Assembly: GCA_934296355.1 (NCBI GenBank)
Contig: CAKRAY010000057.1
Location: 1 to 8,562 of the forward strand
Direction: 5' to 3'
DNA length: 8,562 nucleotides
Source: an uncultured Clostridia bacterium
GTDB lineage: Bacteria; Bacillota; Clostridia; Christensenellales; DTU072
Shown here: piece by piece, positions 1 to 8,097 of the stretch
Layout: the number at the start of each line of letters is the position of its first letter
Position numbering within the stretch: the first letter of the stretch is position 1
The notes under the pieces: generated by a model
What the model saw: only the letters and a program-made list of their open reading frames with translations
Databases searched by the model: none
What the model was told of the DNA's origin: nothing
Position numbers and translations under genes: made by a program

Positions 1-8
1 TATATATG

Positions 9-128
9 ATTCTTTCCCATTCTGACTTTACAGGCGGTTGCGGGATCTCACCGCATCGGCTGTTGGGGCTGTCGGACTCGTCCGTAAAAAACGGCATTAC
101 CGCCGGTTGGCTTAGCCACCCAAAGAAT
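9..128 (-). promoter_or_regulatory. FMN riboswitch (RFN element), divergent variant
   Basis: Read on the minus strand, this stretch carries the hallmarks of the FMN aptamer in order. P1 5' strand ATTCTTT (128-122) pairs with AAAGAAT (15-9). A short P2 is TGGC-TAA-GCCA. ACCGGCGGTAA (107-97) follows, then a variable CCGT/ACGG side stem, AGTCCGACAGC, P5 with GCGG-TGAGATC-CCGC (about 56-39), and finally CCGCCTGTAAAGTCAGAATGGGA (37-15). The usual words are ACCGGCGGT, CCGCGA, CGGTGAnAnTCCG, CCGACnGTnAAAGTCnGGATG. The fold is recognisable, but core positions differ and loop L2 is only about 3 nt. FMN riboswitches control riboflavin synthesis or uptake genes in cis. The expression platform and target gene lie beyond position 1, outside the window. 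A good promoter ends about 10 nt before P1. Confidence 0.85.
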
Positions 129-138
129 ATTTTTCTTA

Positions 139-167
139 ATTTTAATTCTCGATATTCTCTTTGTCAA
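139..167 (-). promoter_or_regulatory. Promoter of the FMN riboswitch transcript
   Basis: On the minus strand TTGACA (167-162), a 17-nt spacer and TAAAAT (144-139) form a near-consensus sigma-A promoter. Its expected start site, near position 131, lies just before the 5' strand of riboswitch helix P1, so the aptamer would be the first thing transcribed. This supports the riboswitch as an expressed element. Confidence 0.75.
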
Positions 168-328: not shown

Positions 329-348
329 ACGTTTAGGAGATGTGCATT

Positions 349-1536
349 ATGGAAAGATTAATCGGTACGGTTTCGCGCGGCATAAGAGCGCCGATAATAA
401 GACAGGGAGACGATATCGCCAAAATCGTGGTAGACAGCGTTTTGGACGCTTGCAAGAATCATAACATAACTTTAAGAGATAAAGACGTCGTGTGCGTGAC
501 GGAAGCGGTCGTAGCGAGAGCGCAAGGCAATTATGCGAGCGTGGACGACATCGCGGCGGACGTAAAGAGCAAGTTCGGCGACGCGACGGTGGGCGTTATT
601 TTCCCGATTCTCAGCCGTAACCGTTTCGCAATTTGTTTAAGAGGCATCGCGAAAGGTTTGAAAAAAATCGTGCTTATGCTCAGTTATCCTTCGGACGAAG
701 TGGGCAATCATCTCGTCGATTTGGACACGCTCGACGAAAAGGGCGTTAATCCGTGGAGCGACGTGCTTACCGAAAGTAAGTATAGAGAACTTTTCGGTTA
801 TAGAAAGCATACGTTTACCGGCGTAGATTATATCGATTACTATAAGAAACTTATCGAAGAGAGCGGTTGCGAAGCGGAAATCATCTTTGCGAACGACTGC
901 CGCGCCATTCTCGACTATACCGACAAAGTTCTTAACTGCGACATTCATACGAGAGCGAGAACGAAACGCCTTCTCAAAGCCAAAGGCGCAACGGTATACT
1001 CCCTCGACGATATACTTACTTCCTCGATAAACGGCAGCGGATTTAACGAAAAATACGGCTTGCTCGGTTCCAATAAAGCGACGGAAGACACGATAAAACT
1101 CTTCCCGCGCGACTGTCAAAAAGTCGTAGACAGAATTCAAAAAGAACTTACCGAAAAAACGGGCGCAAAAGTGGAAGCGATGATTTACGGCGACGGCGCG
1201 TTCAAAGACCCCGTGGGTAAGATTTGGGAACTCGCCGACCCGGTGGTTTCTCCCGCGTATACCTCCGGACTCGAAGGACAACCTAACGAAGTAAAACTAA
1301 AATATCTTGCCGACAACAACTTTGCCGACCTCAGCGGACAAGCGCTTAAAGACGCGATCAGCGACTATATACGCCACAAGGACGCCGATCTCGTAGGACA
1401 AATGGTTTCGCAAGGCACCACTCCGCGCAGACTTACCGACCTTATCGGCAGTCTTTGCGACCTTACCAGCGGCAGTGGCGACAAAGGCACGCCTATCGTG
1501 CTTGTTCAAGGCTATTTCGATAACTATACGAAGTAA
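349..1536 (+). CDS. CofE-like protein (coenzyme F420-0:L-glutamate ligase family)
   Basis: The 395-residue product resembles the F420_ligase family. In methanogens and actinobacteria that family adds glutamate to F420-0 with GTP. The N-terminal part shows family-like blocks: PIIRQGDD (residues 15-22), DVVCVTEAVVARAQG (46-60), and near the C-terminal third MIYGDGAFKDP (278-288). No signal peptide or membrane segment is seen, so it should be cytoplasmic. Archaeal CofE is about 250 residues, so this longer form is the one seen in gut Clostridia that generally lack the F420 pathway, and its substrate is uncertain. The start at 349 is preferred because AGGAG at 335-339 is 9 nt away; the in-frame ATG at 340 touches the Shine-Dalgarno. 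It appears monocistronic, with its own promoter and a terminator at 1552-1584. Confidence 0.75.
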   Translation: MERLIGTVSRGIRAPIIRQGDDIAKIVVDSVLDACKNHNITLRDKDVVCVTEAVVARAQGNYASVDDIAADVKSKFGDATVGVIFPILSRNRFAICLRGIAKGLKKIVLMLSYPSDEVGNHLVDLDTLDEKGVNPWSDVLTESKYRELFGYRKHTFTGVDYIDYYKKLIEESGCEAEIIFANDCRAILDYTDKVLNCDIHTRARTKRLLKAKGATVYSLDDILTSSINGSGFNEKYGLLGSNKATEDTIKLFPRDCQKVVDRIQKELTEKTGAKVEAMIYGDGAFKDPVGKIWELADPVVSPAYTSGLEGQPNEVKLKYLADNNFADLSGQALKDAISDYIRHKDADLVGQMVSQGTTPRRLTDLIGSLCDLTSGSGDKGTPIVLVQGYFDNYTK

Positions 1537-1602: not shown

Positions 1603-2202
1603 TTATTTGAAAATGTTTAATAAGGTTTTTATTACGATTTCGCGCATCGCCTTGTAATCTATGTAGTCGTGTTTGTCGTACACGGACTCGTGCGCGAAAG
1701 ATTGTATCATATTCATTGCGAGGTGAATCTTTTCTTTGGGATTCTCTATTTGCATATTCGCGCGGGCGAACGCGTCGGATAAATTCTTGGTTACGTGTTC
1801 TTCCAAGGAAAGGAAAGCGGAGTTAACGCCGTTGTCCGTAGATTCGAGCGCGTGTAAAGCGTTATGTAAATGCGCGTTCTTTTGATGTATCTCTATAGTT
1901 TTGTCGATGATTAAGGGTATTAAGCGTTCTAAATCCAATTTATCTTCCGTAATCGTCATAATTTCCATTAACGGCTTCGACACTTCGTCTATATATATCT
2001 TAATTACATATTGTAATATATCTCTTTTATCCTTAAAGTAACTGTACACGATTCCGGTAGAAACGCCGGCGCGCTTGGCTATTTCCGCCGTGTTGGCGGC
2101 GTAGTAACCCACTTCCGCGAATACTTCGTAACTCGCGCGAATGATTCTATTCTTCTTTTCCGTGGACCTGTCTTGTTGAGGTTGCCTGATCTTTTTTTCC
2201 AT
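1603..2202 (-). CDS. TetR/AcrR-family transcriptional regulator
   Basis: The 199-residue product has the standard TetR length and layout. A basic N-terminus is followed by a helix-turn-helix of about residues 20-56, ending in TAEIAKRAGVSTGIVYSYF (38-56). This matches the family pattern, including the typical G-(I/V)-Y-x-Y-F end of the recognition helix. The C-terminal two thirds are helical and would form the dimer and an unidentified ligand pocket. Family members are usually repressors released by a small molecule. The gene is divergent from the feo operon, with 215 bp between the starts, and a 7+2+7 palindrome lies in the feo promoter spacer, so feo and self-control are plausible targets. 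Its own ribosome binding site is poor: only an AGAGA-like run further upstream is visible. Its effector and targets are inferred, not seen. Confidence 0.9.
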   Translation of the reverse strand: MEKKIRQPQQDRSTEKKNRIIRASYEVFAEVGYYAANTAEIAKRAGVSTGIVYSYFKDKRDILQYVIKIYIDEVSKPLMEIMTITEDKLDLERLIPLIIDKTIEIHQKNAHLHNALHALESTDNGVNSAFLSLEEHVTKNLSDAFARANMQIENPKEKIHLAMNMIQSFAHESVYDKHDYIDYKAMREIVIKTLLNIFK

Positions 2203-2417: not shown

Positions 2418-2630
2418 ATGCCGATTATATTAGCCCCGATGAACGTTACGCTTAAAGTAATAAGAATCGGATCCGACGAGAAGACGAAAAAGCATCTCGA
2501 AAGTTTGGGAATTACGCTCAGCAGCGAGTTATCCGTTTTAAGCAGCAGCGGCGGCACCGTTATTGTTAAAGTTAAGGACGGCAGAATCGCGCTTGACAGA
2601 GAATTGAGCGCAAAAATATTCGTAGCGTAA
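2418..2630 (+). CDS. feoA: FeoA-domain protein (first copy)
   Basis: This 70-residue cytoplasmic protein belongs to the FeoA family, small SH3-like proteins that assist the Fe(II) permease FeoB. The family pattern is visible in KVIRIGSDEKTKKHLESLGI (about residues 12-31), a helix ending in L-G-I, followed by a strand-rich half with VLSSSGGTVIVKVKDGRIAL and a closing VA. The start is fixed by AAGGAG at 2406-2411, 6 nt before the ATG. It is the first gene of the operon and lies 38 bp before a second, more canonical feoA. The two copies differ widely in sequence, so they are probably specialised and not a recent duplication. Its individual role is unknown. Confidence 0.88.
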   Translation: MPIILAPMNVTLKVIRIGSDEKTKKHLESLGITLSSELSVLSSSGGTVIVKVKDGRIALDRELSAKIFVA

Positions 2631-2668
2631 AAAATATTCAGAAAAAATATCTAAAGGAGATTGAAAAT

Positions 2669-2908
2669 ATGGAGAAAACACTTGACAATTTTGTCCTCGG
2701 CGAAAAAGGCGTCGTTAAGGCGGTCGTCGGCGAAGGCAAGATAAAAAGACGTTTGTTCGATATGGGCATTACGCCGGGCGCTGAAATCTATATGAGAAAA
2801 CGCGCGCCTCTCGGAGACCCGTTGGAGATCACTCTCAGGGGATACGAACTCACTTTGAGAAAAACGGAAGCGGTATGCGTAACGATGATAACGGAGGGCA
2901 ATAAGTAA
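2669..2908 (+). CDS. feoA: FeoA ferrous iron transport protein A (second copy)
   Basis: The 79-residue product is a textbook FeoA: GEKGVVKAV near the start, RRLFDMGITPGAEI (about residues 28-41), then RAPLGDPLEITLRGYELTLRK, ending in the typical AVCVTMI strand. These are the hallmark M-G-(I/L)-x-P-G and A-P-x-G-D-P motifs. FeoA is a small SH3-like cytoplasmic partner of FeoB, thought to modulate its GTPase or assembly. AAAGGAGA at 2653-2660 sets the start. The stop codon overlaps the feoB start by one base (TAATG at 2906-2910), which indicates translational coupling with feoB. Confidence 0.95.
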   Translation: MEKTLDNFVLGEKGVVKAVVGEGKIKRRLFDMGITPGAEIYMRKRAPLGDPLEITLRGYELTLRKTEAVCVTMITEGNK

Positions 2909-5253
2909 TGAAAAAGTTCGCTTTAGCAGGAAATCCTAACTGCGGAAAGACCACGTTATTTAACAGTTTGACCGGTTCTACGGCGCACGTAGGAAACTGG
3001 CCCGGCGTAACCGTGGACAAGCGCGAAGGTTTATATAAGAAATGCGCGGAACCCGTTCAAATCGTCGACCTTCCCGGTATCTACTCGTTATCCCCGTACA
3101 CGCCGGAAGAAGTTATCGCAAGAAACTATATTCTTGACGAAAAACCCGACTGTATCATAAACATAGTCGATGCGACTAACCTCGAACGTAACCTTTATTT
3201 GTCGACGCAAATCATGGAAATCGACGTTCCTATGGTAATCGCGCTTAACTTCATGGACGCGGTAGAAAAGAACGGCGACAAAATCGACGCGAGGGAACTC
3301 GAAAGCAGATTGGGTATCCCGGTAGTTAAAATTTCCGCTTTGAAGGAAACCGGACTTAAAGACCTTATGGATAAGGCGTACAACGAAAGCAAAAAGGTTC
3401 GTACCGGCGCCAGCGTATTGGAAAGCACGCCCATAGCGCACCTTATCGGCGACGTTACCATTGCGTTAAAAGGTCAAAACGTCAATAACCCGTTGTTCCA
3501 CGCCATTAAACTCGTAGAGAACGACAGTATAGAAGTAATAATGCATAAAGAAACGGTAGCGATGGTAGACGAATTCAAACAAACGTTTACCGACGAAGTA
3601 TTCGGTACCGATTTCGAAGCGTTGATTGCCGACGCGAGATATAAGTATATCTCCAAAAATTTCGCTTCCGTCGTAGAACGTAAGAATAAAGACAAAGTAA
3701 AAATGACTAAGTCCGATAGGGCGGACAAAGTATTGACCCATAAGATTTGGGGAATTCCCATCTTCCTGCTTATTCTTTTCGGTATTTTCCATTTAACATT
3801 CGGCGAGGACCTCTTATACTTAGGTAAGATATTCTCATTGCCCGCCCTTGCAGACTTACAACCTACTTGGTTTGTAGACGGCGAGCCTATCAATTACGGC
3901 GTAAAACTTGCGCTATGTTTCTATGACGGCGCGCTGTTCTCGCCCGGCGTTATCATTAACAATATATGGAACGATTGTATGGTAGGCGAGTTGTTCGGAC
4001 TTATTCAAGGCGCAGTCGAAAGTAGCGCTATGGCGCCGTGGGCAATCGGACTAATCAATAACGGTATAATCGACGGTTTAGGCGCGGTATTATCGTTCTT
4101 GCCCCCGATCCTCGTATTGTTCCTGTTCTTCTCGATTCTCGAAGATTCCGGATATATGGCGCGTATCGCGTTCATACTTGACAGAGCGTTCCGTAAATTC
4201 GGACTTTCCGGTAGAGCGTTCATGCCTATGATAATGGGCTTCGGTTGCTCGATTCCGGCAATGATTAACACTCGTACGCTTGCGGACGAAAAAGAAAGAA
4301 CCGCTACGGTAAGAGTAATTCCTTTCTTCTCTTGCGGCGCGAAACTTCCTATCTTGACCGCGACGGCGGGCGCAATCGTAGCGTACTTTAACGTAAGTAA
4401 CGCCGACGCTATCACGTTCGGTATGTACGTACTCGGTATGGCAACGGCGGTAGTAAGCGTACTCTTAATGAGAAGCACAACCTTGAAGGGCGAGACGCCT
4501 CCGTTCATTATGGAACTTCCGGCATACCACGCTCCACAGTTTAAGAATCTAATGGCGCATCTTTGGGATAAGACGAAGCACTTCGTAAAAAAAGCGTTTA
4601 CGATAATCCTCGCGTCCACGATAGTAATTTGGGTACTCACTCACTTCTCGTTCGATTGGCACTTGCTCAAAGACGAAGAGATTAACCAAAGTATCTTAGC
4701 GGGATTAAGCAAACTCATTCAACCTTTGTTCACGCCTCTCGGCTTCGGTAGTCAATTAGGCGAATTCGGTTGGGTGTTCGTAGTAGCGGTCGTAAGCGGA
4801 CTTATCGCGAAAGAAAACGTTATCGGAACGTTCGGCACTCTCGGCGCATGCTTGATTGCCGTTGCGAATATGCAATTCCCCGGACTTGACATCGCGGCAG
4901 AAGACGGTGTAGACGCCGTACAAGCAATGATTATGGCGACCGGAATTACCATCCCCGGACTTATCTCCTTCATTGCGTTCAACATGACTACGATTCCTTG
5001 TTTCGCCGCGGTTGCTACCGCAAAAGCGGAATTACAAGACAAGAAGCGGTACGATTTCACGTTAGTGTTCTGGTTGATTGCTTCTTACACGGTAGGAACG
5101 ATGGTATACACGATTGGTTCTTGGTGGTGGACGACCTTCATCTGGTTGGCAGTCATAGCGATAATCGTTGCGTTGATTGTTTTGAAGAACAAAGGTAAAC
5201 TCAACTTCAAAAAGATTAACTTCAAAAAGATAGCAAGAAAAGGAGCGAAATAA
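2908..5253 (+). CDS. feoB: FeoB ferrous iron permease with GTPase domain
   Basis: The 781-residue product is a complete FeoB, the Fe(II) transporter of the cytoplasmic membrane. The N-terminal G domain shows G1 GNPNCGKT (8-15), the switch I region GVTV (33-36), G3 DLPG (54-57), G4 NFMD (114-117) and a G5-like SALKETG (143-149). A helical GDI-type linker follows to about residue 275. The membrane part holds two Gate regions with the family cysteines in GFGCSIPA (Cys447) and FFSCGAKLP (Cys476), and a further conserved-looking IPC (Cys698). Length is normal for clostridial FeoB. GGAGGG at 2893-2898 sets the start. The Lys-rich C-terminal tail contains a doubled NFKKI. It is coupled to feoA2 and followed by a Cys-rich small gene. 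No feoC is seen. Confidence 0.97.
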   Translation: MKKFALAGNPNCGKTTLFNSLTGSTAHVGNWPGVTVDKREGLYKKCAEPVQIVDLPGIYSLSPYTPEEVIARNYILDEKPDCIINIVDATNLERNLYLSTQIMEIDVPMVIALNFMDAVEKNGDKIDARELESRLGIPVVKISALKETGLKDLMDKAYNESKKVRTGASVLESTPIAHLIGDVTIALKGQNVNNPLFHAIKLVENDSIEVIMHKETVAMVDEFKQTFTDEVFGTDFEALIADARYKYISKNFASVVERKNKDKVKMTKSDRADKVLTHKIWGIPIFLLILFGIFHLTFGEDLLYLGKIFSLPALADLQPTWFVDGEPINYGVKLALCFYDGALFSPGVIINNIWNDCMVGELFGLIQGAVESSAMAPWAIGLINNGIIDGLGAVLSFLPPILVLFLFFSILEDSGYMARIAFILDRAFRKFGLSGRAFMPMIMGFGCSIPAMINTRTLADEKERTATVRVIPFFSCGAKLPILTATAGAIVAYFNVSNADAITFGMYVLGMATAVVSVLLMRSTTLKGETPPFIMELPAYHAPQFKNLMAHLWDKTKHFVKKAFTIILASTIVIWVLTHFSFDWHLLKDEEINQSILAGLSKLIQPLFTPLGFGSQLGEFGWVFVVAVVSGLIAKENVIGTFGTLGACLIAVANMQFPGLDIAAEDGVDAVQAMIMATGITIPGLISFIAFNMTTIPCFAAVATAKAELQDKKRYDFTLVFWLIASYTVGTMVYTIGSWWWTTFIWLAVIAIIVALIVLKNKGKLNFKKINFKKIARKGAK
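5203..5232 (+). repeat. Tandem 15-bp repeat in the feoB tail
   Basis: AACTTCAAAAAGATT (5203-5217) is followed directly by AACTTCAAAAAGATA (5218-5232). The copies differ at one base and duplicate the peptide NFKKI in the basic C-terminal tail. The length is a multiple of three, so the frame is kept. It is probably a harmless slippage duplication. Confidence 0.8.
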
Positions 5254-6930: not shown

Positions 6931-8097
6931 ATGATGAAGAAAAGAATGGTACCGATTATCATGATTGCCGTGGCGTTGCTGGCGTGCTTTTTGACCGCGT
7001 GCAATTCCGGCGAGGTCGACGTAAGCGGTAAAACGAAAGTGGTGTTCGTACTCGAAGGCGGAACGTATAAAAACAGCGACCTTCCCGTTACCTACTACTA
7101 CGGGTTCGAAGAAGGAACGAGCAATTTGATTAAAGACATGTTCGCGAGCGACACGGGATACAAGTTGGAACGCAACGGATACGAAGTCGAGGGTTGGTAT
7201 CGTACGAGAAAGGAAGACGGCGGAAAAGTTACTTACGAAGACAAGTGGAATTTCGAAACCGACAAGGTTACGAGCGAGGGCGTCACTTTGTACGCGAACT
7301 GGCAACCTATTATCAAGTATTCCTACGCGATTTACTATAAAAAAGCCGACGGCACCGAACAACAAATCGGCGAACCGTATTTCGTAAAGAAAGGCGACGC
7401 GTTCAACGACATTCTCGGCAAGGCGAAGAAAGGTATGTCGGGCTATACGTTTTTACGCTTCGCGCAAGCAAACGGCGAAGAATGGGACGAAACGTTTAAG
7501 CATCCCGGCGGCGAAACCGACTGCGAAATAAAAGTTTACGCCGAGTACATCGAGGGTAAGTGGAGTATCGTGAATACGTTTAACGAACTCAAACTCAACA
7601 AGAAGAACAACATTTATCTTAACGCCGATTTAGACCTTGGCGGAAAAGAATTTTCCTTCGGCGAATATAAGGGCAACTTTAACGGCAACGGACATACGAT
7701 AAGCAATTTCAAAATCGCTTACGACCCGTCGCGTAACGGGCTTTCCGAAGATAAAAACGATTCCACTATGAAGAGTTTGTACATAAGCGTTTTCGGCAAC
7801 GTGAAAAACGCCGTTATCGAAAACTTAACGCTCGCAAACGTTTCGGTGGAAGTAAGCACTACGTTTGACCAAACCGACAGAATTTACGTTTCCGCAATAT
7901 GCTCGTTTATGGAGAATTCCGTAATACGCAACGTTAACGTAAAGAACTTCGATATGACAATCGCGAAAACGCCGTGGGACGACGACGAAGAAAAGAAAAA
8001 AGATAATCTGGTCGTCGCGGCGGACGGAATTTACGTAGAAAAGGACGAAACGTCCGCAGTGGAAAATTCGAGCGTGGAATACGCCGGGAAAGAATAA
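6931..8097 (+). CDS. Lipoprotein with InlB-like and GLUG/beta-helix-like regions
   Basis: The 388-residue product has a signal peptide with a lipobox LTAC (Cys24), so it should be anchored on the outer face of the membrane. Residues about 34-125 read as an InlB B-repeat/Listeria-Bacteroides repeat: a V-V-F strand at the start, then GYEVEGWYR (near 84-91) and closing LYANW (120-124). Residues 127-212 form a second, more degenerate module (GYTFLRF, KVYAEY). Residues about 212-345 contain DLDLGGKEF and GNFNGNGHTISNF (248-260), then AVIENLTLANVSV and SVIRNVNVKNFDM, typical of GLUG-type beta-helix repeats. The tail is charged. GAGG at 6922-6925 serves ATG 6931 or the adjacent 6934. Surface adhesion or polymer binding is inferred from the domains only. 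Confidence 0.8.
   Translation: MMKKRMVPIIMIAVALLACFLTACNSGEVDVSGKTKVVFVLEGGTYKNSDLPVTYYYGFEEGTSNLIKDMFASDTGYKLERNGYEVEGWYRTRKEDGGKVTYEDKWNFETDKVTSEGVTLYANWQPIIKYSYAIYYKKADGTEQQIGEPYFVKKGDAFNDILGKAKKGMSGYTFLRFAQANGEEWDETFKHPGGETDCEIKVYAEYIEGKWSIVNTFNELKLNKKNNIYLNADLDLGGKEFSFGEYKGNFNGNGHTISNFKIAYDPSRNGLSEDKNDSTMKSLYISVFGNVKNAVIENLTLANVSVEVSTTFDQTDRIYVSAICSFMENSVIRNVNVKNFDMTIAKTPWDDDEEKKKDNLVVAADGIYVEKDETSAVENSSVEYAGKE

What the first reader, a model, noticed from the sequence alone, without database searches (positions are those of the whole stretch)
9..128. FMN riboswitch with altered binding core and clipped P2 loop
Aligned by eye without gaps to the well-known F. nucleatum FMN aptamer from its position 82 to 101, this RNA has C where that RNA has A85 (window position 34, CCGCC instead of CCGAC), and A where it has G98 (window 21, GTCAGAATG instead of GTCnGGATG). 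CCGCGA is CCGACA, J1/2 is shortened, and L2 is about 3 nt instead of about 7. A48 and A99 equivalents are kept. A85 helps form the base triple that stacks on the flavin ring, and L2 normally contacts L6. Rare FMN-riboswitch variants with altered ligand specificity are known in C. difficile and other bacteria, so this could sense another flavin-like compound. It has an excellent promoter, which argues against simple decay.
Basis: partly seen in the sequence, partly recalled or inferred. Interest (0 to 1): 0.72.

Follow-up and report, generated by a model that had tools for sequence, protein, structure and literature searches.

The report
Vitamin B6 riboswitch from FMN fold
This RNA, which databases file as a flavin (FMN) riboswitch, belongs to a distinct group that sits in front of vitamin B6 genes in many bacteria and is predicted to sense pyridoxal phosphate, an essential coenzyme that two recent reviews list as lacking a known natural RNA sensor.

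Summary
In detail: the minus strand of window 5-132 folds as an FMN-riboswitch aptamer (RF00050, 63.0 bits, just under the 66.2 cut-off) with C for A85, A for G98 and CCGACA for CCGCGA. It is not a lone mutant. A sequence-only scan found 53 loci with the double change, and further searches brought the set to 101 copies in at least seven class-level groups of bacteria. All 96 aligned copies share features absent from 44 canonical aptamers (30 from the same genomes): a fixed short P4 whose loop (CCYCA) can pair with J6/1 (UGRG), and no A85/G98 pair. Gene context separates the two. Of 96 readable variant copies, 95 precede vitamin B6-type genes: 85 transporter S components related to pyridoxamine transporter HmpT, 7 pdxS, 2 pyridoxamine-pyruvate-transaminase-like, 1 pyridoxal-type kinase. 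Of 43 readable canonical copies, 43 precede ribU or ribD. Best reading: a riboswitch that evolved from the FMN fold to sense PLP. The window's own target gene lies beyond its left edge. No binding was tested.

The parts
5..132 (-). Variant FMN-fold aptamer (P1-P6), predicted PLP-sensing; R1 places it at 8-129
   Evidence: RF00050 63.0 bits; own model R1 136.7 bits, the window being one of its 29 training sequences
139..167 (-). Sigma-70-like promoter TTGACA-17-TAAAAT upstream of the aptamer
   Evidence: consensus scan, 11 of 12
60..71 (-). Class signature CAGCCCCAACAG: residues C47, A48 and the fixed short P4 with its loop
   Evidence: motif in 96 of 96 variants (53 of 53 retrieved without it, 43 of 43 of the rest), 0 of 44 canonical
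64..67 (-). P4 loop strand CCCA of the proposed P4-loop/J6-1 pseudoknot
   Evidence: four pairs, all cells paired in 92 distinct rows; C-G 65, U-G 24, U-A 3 at the one varying pair
16..19 (-). J6/1 strand UGGG of the proposed pseudoknot (residues 100-103)
34..34 (-). C at the A85 position (A85 stacks on the flavin in FMN aptamers)
   Evidence: sequence; variant and canonical counts; role of A85
21..21 (-). A at the G98 position
   Evidence: sequence
72..73 (-). J3/4 entry: G45, A46 (A46 replaces C46)
35..35 (-). G84 equivalent, phosphate-contact residue kept
   Evidence: 96 of 96 variants; role
57..57 (-). G62 equivalent, phosphate-contact residue kept
   Evidence: 96 of 96 variants; role
104..104 (-). 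G32 equivalent, phosphate-contact residue kept
   Evidence: 96 of 96 variants; role

Best explanation
The window RNA is a copy of a distinct, conserved variant of the FMN-riboswitch fold whose relatives precede vitamin B6 uptake, salvage and synthesis genes, and it likely senses pyridoxal 5'-phosphate (PLP) and would switch its gene off when PLP is plentiful. Shown: the fold, the altered core shared by 96 aligned copies, the split of gene contexts from canonical FMN aptamers, and terminator-like hairpins in 40 of 78 leaders. Inferred: the phosphate-binding guanines are kept for the 5'-phosphate of PLP; the shortened P4 loop pairs with J6/1 beside A99 and rebuilds the ring-binding side for a small pyridine; ligand binding stabilises P1 and favours the terminator. 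Inferred: the window copy controls a PdxU-type S component just beyond its left edge.
For: The 53 loci were found by sequence alone and the rest by a covariance model or the P4-loop motif; no search used gene content. First assigned genes: by tblastn, 81 S components, 6 pdxS, 2 transaminases, 1 kinase and 1 unassigned among 91 readable of 96 copies; five further copies are 4 S components and 1 pdxS-pdxT. PF07155 matches 78 of 78 S components tested of those 81 and 4 of 4 of the later ones; it is the family of PdxU and PdxU2/HmpT (PMC9997740, passages). A profile of the 78 matches one solved protein, 4hzu_S (E 7.7e-33), the HmpT whose bound substrate was identified as pyridoxamine (PMC4860826, abstract and passages), while a profile of 40 canonical targets matches RibU first. 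14 of 14 kinases aligned (of 17) match pyridoxamine kinase NF005491, best E 9.8e-99; 6 of 6 PdxS match PdxS models; the L090 transaminase's best NCBIfam model is pyridoxamine-pyruvate transaminase. Four genomes carry two copies, at two different B6-type genes. pdxST, pdxK and pdxU are also the main genes of the protein regulator PdxR's regulon (PMC5320631, passage). Canonical contrast: A85/G98 in 42 of 42 parsed of 44, ribU 40 and ribD 3 of 43 readable. 35 of 43 variant-bearing genomes tested have neither PdxS nor PdxJ over cut-off. Phosphate-site G32, G62, G84 are kept in 96 of 96, G11 in 92 and G10 in 88.
Against: No binding or expression data. The window's own gene is not visible (7 bases follow the R1 match). 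L043 has no B6 gene assigned. The tblastn assignment sought only chosen families, so an unrelated gene in between would be missed; in 85 of 90 assigned copies the match starts within 224 bases, in 5 it starts 266-673 bases away. The kinase shown scores below the curated cut-off (218.5 against 231) and the transaminase well below it (288.5 against 600). The pseudoknot's changes come from few lineages, and three of its four pairs never vary. R1 scores of variants and canonical copies overlap (variants down to 64.7, canonical up to 94.5), so the class is told by its residues, not by score. Residues 85, 98 and 99 vary within the class, so which bases read the ring is not known. PLP is the inferred vitamer; pyridoxal, pyridoxamine or PMP are not excluded. 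38 of 78 leaders gave no terminator-like hairpin under the criterion used. The genomes tested for PdxS and PdxJ are of unstated completeness.
Confidence: 0.8

Rival explanations
1. The RNA still binds FMN and couples B6 genes to flavin status. The pocket changes would only tune affinity.
For: Many copies pass the RF00050 cut-off (8 of 10), and A48 and the phosphate guanines are kept. A 2015 paper raised networks between riboflavin and other vitamins for two such cases (PMC4418817, passage).
Against: No variant keeps A85 with G98 (0 of 96); A99, which pairs with the ligand in FMN aptamers, is T or G in 18 of the 43 copies not selected for it; P4 is rebuilt; no riboflavin gene was assigned to any readable copy while canonical copies precede ribU or ribD.
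Confidence: 0.08
2. The ligand is a B6 vitamer other than PLP, such as pyridoxal, pyridoxamine or PMP.
For: Same gene evidence; HmpT carries pyridoxamine.
Against: The kept phosphate-site guanines and the cofactor logic of vitamin riboswitches favour the phosphorylated end product; both are inference.
Confidence: 0.09
3. The ligand is a thiamin precursor (HMP or its phosphates), the S components being HMP transporters and the kinases HMP kinases.
For: The 4hzu S component was first named HmpT for HMP, and all 14 kinases also match HMP-kinase models.
Against: pdxS, pdxT and pyridoxamine-pyruvate-transaminase-like targets have no place in thiamin synthesis (general knowledge); NF005491 pyridoxamine kinase is the best model for the kinase shown and by best E-value over the set (9.8e-99 against 3.6e-20 for the HMP-P kinase model); pyridoxamine was identified in HmpT.
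Confidence: 0.02
4. The window copy is a decayed FMN riboswitch.
For: Score below the RF00050 gathering cut-off.
Against: The same changes recur in 53 loci, helices covary, and a good promoter match precedes it.
Confidence: 0.01

Closest known systems
FMN riboswitch (RFN element, RF00050)
   Same: Overall P1-P6 architecture, A48, phosphate-contact guanines, terminator-like platforms
   Different: No A85/G98 pair, C47, fixed short P4 with a conserved loop that can pair with J6/1, B6-type genes instead of riboflavin genes
Subtype 2 FMN-riboswitch variant of C. difficile (Atilho 2019, paper not held; known here from the review PMC11477304, passages)
   Same: Derived FMN fold with altered pocket and a ligand other than FMN
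   Different: That one precedes an MFS efflux gene, is an ON switch and binds lumichrome and lumiflavin; its sequence could not be compared here
'FMN riboswitch' at yaaDE (pdxST) of Thermaerobacter marianensis, noted in PMC4418817 (passages)
   Same: FMN-like aptamer in front of PLP synthase, like the 7 pdxS copies here
   Different: Reported as an oddity without obvious role; no variant class and no B6 ligand proposed in the passages read; its sequence was not examined here
PdxR regulon (PMC5320631, passage)
   Same: Controls pdxST, pdxK and pdxU
   Different: PdxR is a protein transcription factor, not an RNA

Membership tests
FMN riboswitch (RF00050) | P1-P6 aptamer fold with covarying helices | tested here: met
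   RF00050 63.0 bits, slightly under the 66.2 cut-off; helix covariation
FMN riboswitch (RF00050) | A85 with G98, the ligand-stacking layer | tested here: not met
   C/A in the window; 0 of 96 variants against 42 of 42 parsed canonical copies, 2 of 44 canonical not parsed
FMN riboswitch (RF00050) | A48 and A99 | tested here: inconclusive
   Both kept in the window; in the class A48 is 95 of 96 by the parse and 96 of 96 by the motif-anchored parse; A99 is 78 of 96, 53 of these selected for it
FMN riboswitch (RF00050) | Extended P4 with variable loop | tested here: not met
   Fixed loop motif in 96 of 96 variants, 0 of 44 canonical
FMN riboswitch (RF00050) | Control of riboflavin genes | tested here: not met
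   Class: 0 of 96 readable copies; canonical: 43 of 43 readable. For the window itself the gene is off the edge
FMN riboswitch (RF00050) | Binds FMN | not testable with these tools
   Needs biochemistry
Subtype 2 FMN-riboswitch variant | Precedes an MFS efflux gene | tested here: not met
   Not among the first genes assigned, though an MFS-like ORF is second in L035 (by eye); the pocket sequence of subtype 2 was not available
PLP-sensing riboswitch (proposed) | Upstream of B6 transport, salvage and synthesis genes | tested here: met
   95 of 96 readable copies; window copy itself not readable
PLP-sensing riboswitch (proposed) | Binds PLP | not testable with these tools
   Needs biochemistry

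The most novel reading that the evidence does not exclude
This is the first natural riboswitch class for pyridoxal 5'-phosphate: an FMN aptamer that kept its phosphate site, shortened P4, closed the loop onto J6/1 as a pseudoknot and so replaced the flavin slot with a pyridine slot, then took over the whole B6 regulon (pdxST, pdxK, pdxU, pyridoxamine transaminase) across several classes of bacteria while its FMN parent still controls riboflavin uptake in the same cells.
Probability: 0.75. Interest if true: 0.95.

Novelty: new variant of a known kind. Interest (0 to 1): 0.9.

Why it matters
Reviews of 2022 and 2023 name pyridoxal phosphate among the coenzymes without a validated or discovered riboswitch, and discuss whether such blind spots reflect limits of RNA (PMC10043782; PMC11207198; passages). 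A PLP riboswitch would fill that gap, show one aptamer fold moving from one coenzyme to another, offer an explanation for the odd 'FMN riboswitch' at pdxST reported in 2015, correct annotations that would call these genes flavin-regulated, and point to B6 importers in uncultured bacteria in which no B6 synthesis gene was found.

Tried and rejected
Extending the window leftward was not possible: no genome is held for it, and tblastn of five window proteins against the loci held by then gave only one distant FeoB match. A flavin-like ligand was dropped on gene context. Riboflavin import was considered because Pfam names PF07155 'ECF-type riboflavin transporter' and 44 of 78 S components also match an NCBIfam riboflavin-transporter model at E <= 0.001 (35.4 bits against a cut-off of 99 for the L025 protein). 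It was dropped because PdxU and HmpT belong to PF07155, the profile of the S components matches 4hzu_S alone among solved structures, and the transporters after canonical aptamers match RibU structures and PF12822 in 37 of 40 (18 of those 40 also match PF07155 weakly, so the two families are related). Thiamin precursors were dropped because of pdxS, pdxT and the transaminase. A viral-contig scan gave one match without an aptamer around it. A scan of 391 genomes of the class of G003 found only G003 itself: the class is rare in that group under the pattern used. A tree with the diagnostic columns masked no longer separates all canonical copies (55 variants plus 10 canonical), so single origin rests partly on the diagnostic residues. 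Whether C. ljungdahlii CLJU_c14910 belongs here was not tested. Rows dropped before counts: L050 (truncated) and repeat fetches of places already counted (L084, L094, L095, L102, L141, L144, L146-L149, L151, L162-L167).

Full report
Observation. The minus strand of window 5-132 is an FMN-type aptamer by RF00050 (63.0 bits, E 8.7e-13, cut-off 66.2). A promoter-like TTGACA-17-TAAAAT lies upstream. Only 7 bases follow the R1 match, so the window's own target gene cannot be read.

The changes are conserved. A scan of the species-genome collection for the double-substituted 3' core, which did not specify P4 or any gene, returned 53 loci, titled as Clostridia, Christensenella-like or other Bacillota genomes. 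The 53 sequences of that set kept for alignment (the window and 52 loci; L050 is truncated) all have a P4 loop motif that the scan had not asked for, and UGRG in J6/1, of which the scan fixed only UG. A covariance model R1 was built from 29 of them and run on 398 genomes of the phylum of G025. Its best matches are more copies with the same P4 loop, interleaved further down with canonical FMN aptamers; R1 scores of the two kinds overlap (variants down to 64.7, canonical up to 94.5), so the class is told by its residues. A P4-loop pattern found 36 sites in 32 of 154 genomes of the class of G329, and matches in 1 of 2 genomes of the class of G123, 2 of 59 of G390, 4 of 26 of G225, 1 of 391 of G003, 2 of 2 of G090 and 3 of 13 of G153, with no match of the reversed control pattern in any genome. 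The class therefore occurs in at least seven class-level groups.

Anatomy. Alignment A2 holds 96 variant copies and A3 holds 44 canonical copies, 30 of them from genomes that also carry a variant. Canonical copies read A85 and G98 in 42 of 42 parsed (2 of 44 not parsed, both with CCAAC); no variant has that pair. In the 43 variants whose retrieval did not specify these residues, position 85 is A 29, C 5, T 5, G 4; position 98 is A 35, G 6, C 1, T 1; position 99 is A 25, T 13, G 5. The loop motif is in 96 of 96 variants and 0 of 44 canonical copies; UGRG alone is also in 15 of 44 canonical copies. The phosphate-contact guanines named in PMC7573352 (passages) are kept: G32, G62, G84 in 96 of 96, G11 in 92 and G10 in 88 (the last two depend on alignment of J1/2). 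The P4 loop CCYCA can pair with U100-G103: 100% of cells in 92 distinct rows, with C-G 65, U-G 24 and U-A 3 at the one varying pair, the U-A cases in L087, L101 and L145. Helices covary strongly overall (covariation score 0.451 against 0.192 in shuffles and at most 0.121 when slid). In a tree 55 of 55 variants separate from 37 canonical copies with support 0.943; with the diagnostic columns masked, the best split holds 55 variants and 10 canonical copies.

Gene context. By tblastn with a chosen set of reference proteins, the first gene assigned after 91 readable variants (5 of 96 too short: window, L001, L045, L052, L129) is an S component in 81, pdxS in 6, a transaminase in 2, a pyridoxal-type kinase in 1 and unassigned in 1 (L043). 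A kinase follows 16 of the 81 S genes, and pdxT was seen after 4 of the 6 pdxS. The match starts within 224 bases of the aptamer in 85 of 90 assigned copies and 266-673 bases away in L101, L105, L087, L007 and L114. The reference proteins were taken from the loci themselves, so naming was checked apart. PF07155 matches 78 of 78 S components tested of 81, three having short open frames. Five further copies are 4 S components, all PF07155, and 1 pdxS (PF01680) followed by pdxT. Pyridoxamine kinase NF005491 matches 14 of 14 kinases aligned of 17. PdxS models match 6 of 6. Pyridoxamine-pyruvate transaminase is the best model and 2z9u the best PDB match of the L090 transaminase, below the model's cut-off. 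PF07155 holds PdxU and PdxU2/HmpT (PMC9997740, passages). A profile of the 78 S components matches one solved protein, 4hzu_S, the HmpT from which pyridoxamine was identified by mass spectrometry (PMC4860826, abstract and passages).

Four genomes carry two copies each at different B6-type genes: G329 (L091 pdxST, L139 S), G470 (L128 pdxST, L153 S), G474 (L154 pdxST, L130 S), G463 (L123 transaminase, L152 S). In contrast, 43 of 43 readable canonical copies precede ribU (40) or ribD (3). Of the 40 of these proteins that could be cut out, 37 match PF12822 and 3 RibD_C, and their profile matches the RibU structures 3p5n, 5kc0 and 5kbw first.

Physiology. Of 50 genomes searched with RF00050, 44 have two matches, one has three and five have one. 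35 of 43 variant-bearing genomes tested (32 of those 50 and 11 others) have neither PdxS (8 have it) nor PdxJ over cut-off (0 have it; one weak match in G329), so most would have to import B6 (completeness of these genomes is not told). A terminator-like hairpin lies between aptamer and gene in 40 of 78 leaders, 2.8 expected in shuffles; for canonical leaders it is 23 of 32, 1.2 expected. This fits an OFF switch; the direction is inferred.

Mechanism, inferred. The FMN fold reads a phosphate through guanines and a ring through A48, A85, A99. The variant keeps the phosphate side, changes the ring side, and folds a short P4 loop onto J6/1 next to residue 99. A small phosphorylated pyridine such as PLP would fit this rebuilt side. 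PLP is the end product that the gene types found serve, and is the usual kind of feedback ligand for vitamin riboswitches (general knowledge).

Known work. PMC4418817 (2015, passages) reports an FMN riboswitch at yaaDE (pdxST) of Thermaerobacter marianensis and at a carbohydrate kinase of C. [quoted passage not shown] Two reviews list pyridoxal phosphate as lacking a riboswitch (PMC10043782; PMC11207198; passages). Searches of the held library for 'PLP riboswitch' and six similar phrases gave 0 papers; searches for riboswitch with pdxS, with pyridoxal and PdxU, and with pyridoxal, FMN and variant gave no listed paper whose title or abstract start proposes one (listings). Most subscription papers, including Atilho 2019 and Serganov 2009, are not held, so prior publication elsewhere is not excluded. 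At these aptamers Rfam matched no family other than FMN.

Noticed in passing
window 340-1536 (+): Divergent gene with a PF01996 F420-0:gamma-glutamyl ligase domain (208 bits) but far below the CofE equivalog cut-offs. It is on the other strand and is not the riboswitch's target.
   Followed up: partly
window 2418-5253 (+), with 1603-2202 (-): Small FeoA-like proteins followed by a FeoB-like iron transporter, next to a divergent TetR-like regulator (by eye).
   Followed up: no
window 6931-8097 (+): Secreted lipoprotein-like protein, followed by a second lipoprotein-like ORF that runs off the right edge (by eye).
   Followed up: no
canonical-aptamer loci such as L056, L058, L061-L064 (alignment A8): 8 of 40 proteins after canonical FMN aptamers also match TsaE (PF02367, best E 2.2e-39), so RibU appears fused to the tRNA-modification ATPase TsaE in some of these bacteria. 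Which eight was not listed; the loci named are long RibU ORFs by eye.
   Followed up: no
L118, L119, L120: Variants with a greatly extended P3 stem-loop (by eye), still with the fixed P4 loop and an S component downstream.
   Followed up: no
L002, L027, L029, L034, L047: In the P4 loop the first G is A where a loop C is U (G-C 91 and A-U 5 of 96), a hint of a further pair inside the loop; the five copies are read by eye.
   Followed up: partly
L043:3815-3939: Variant aptamer with no B6 gene detected downstream; the only readable exception.
   Followed up: partly
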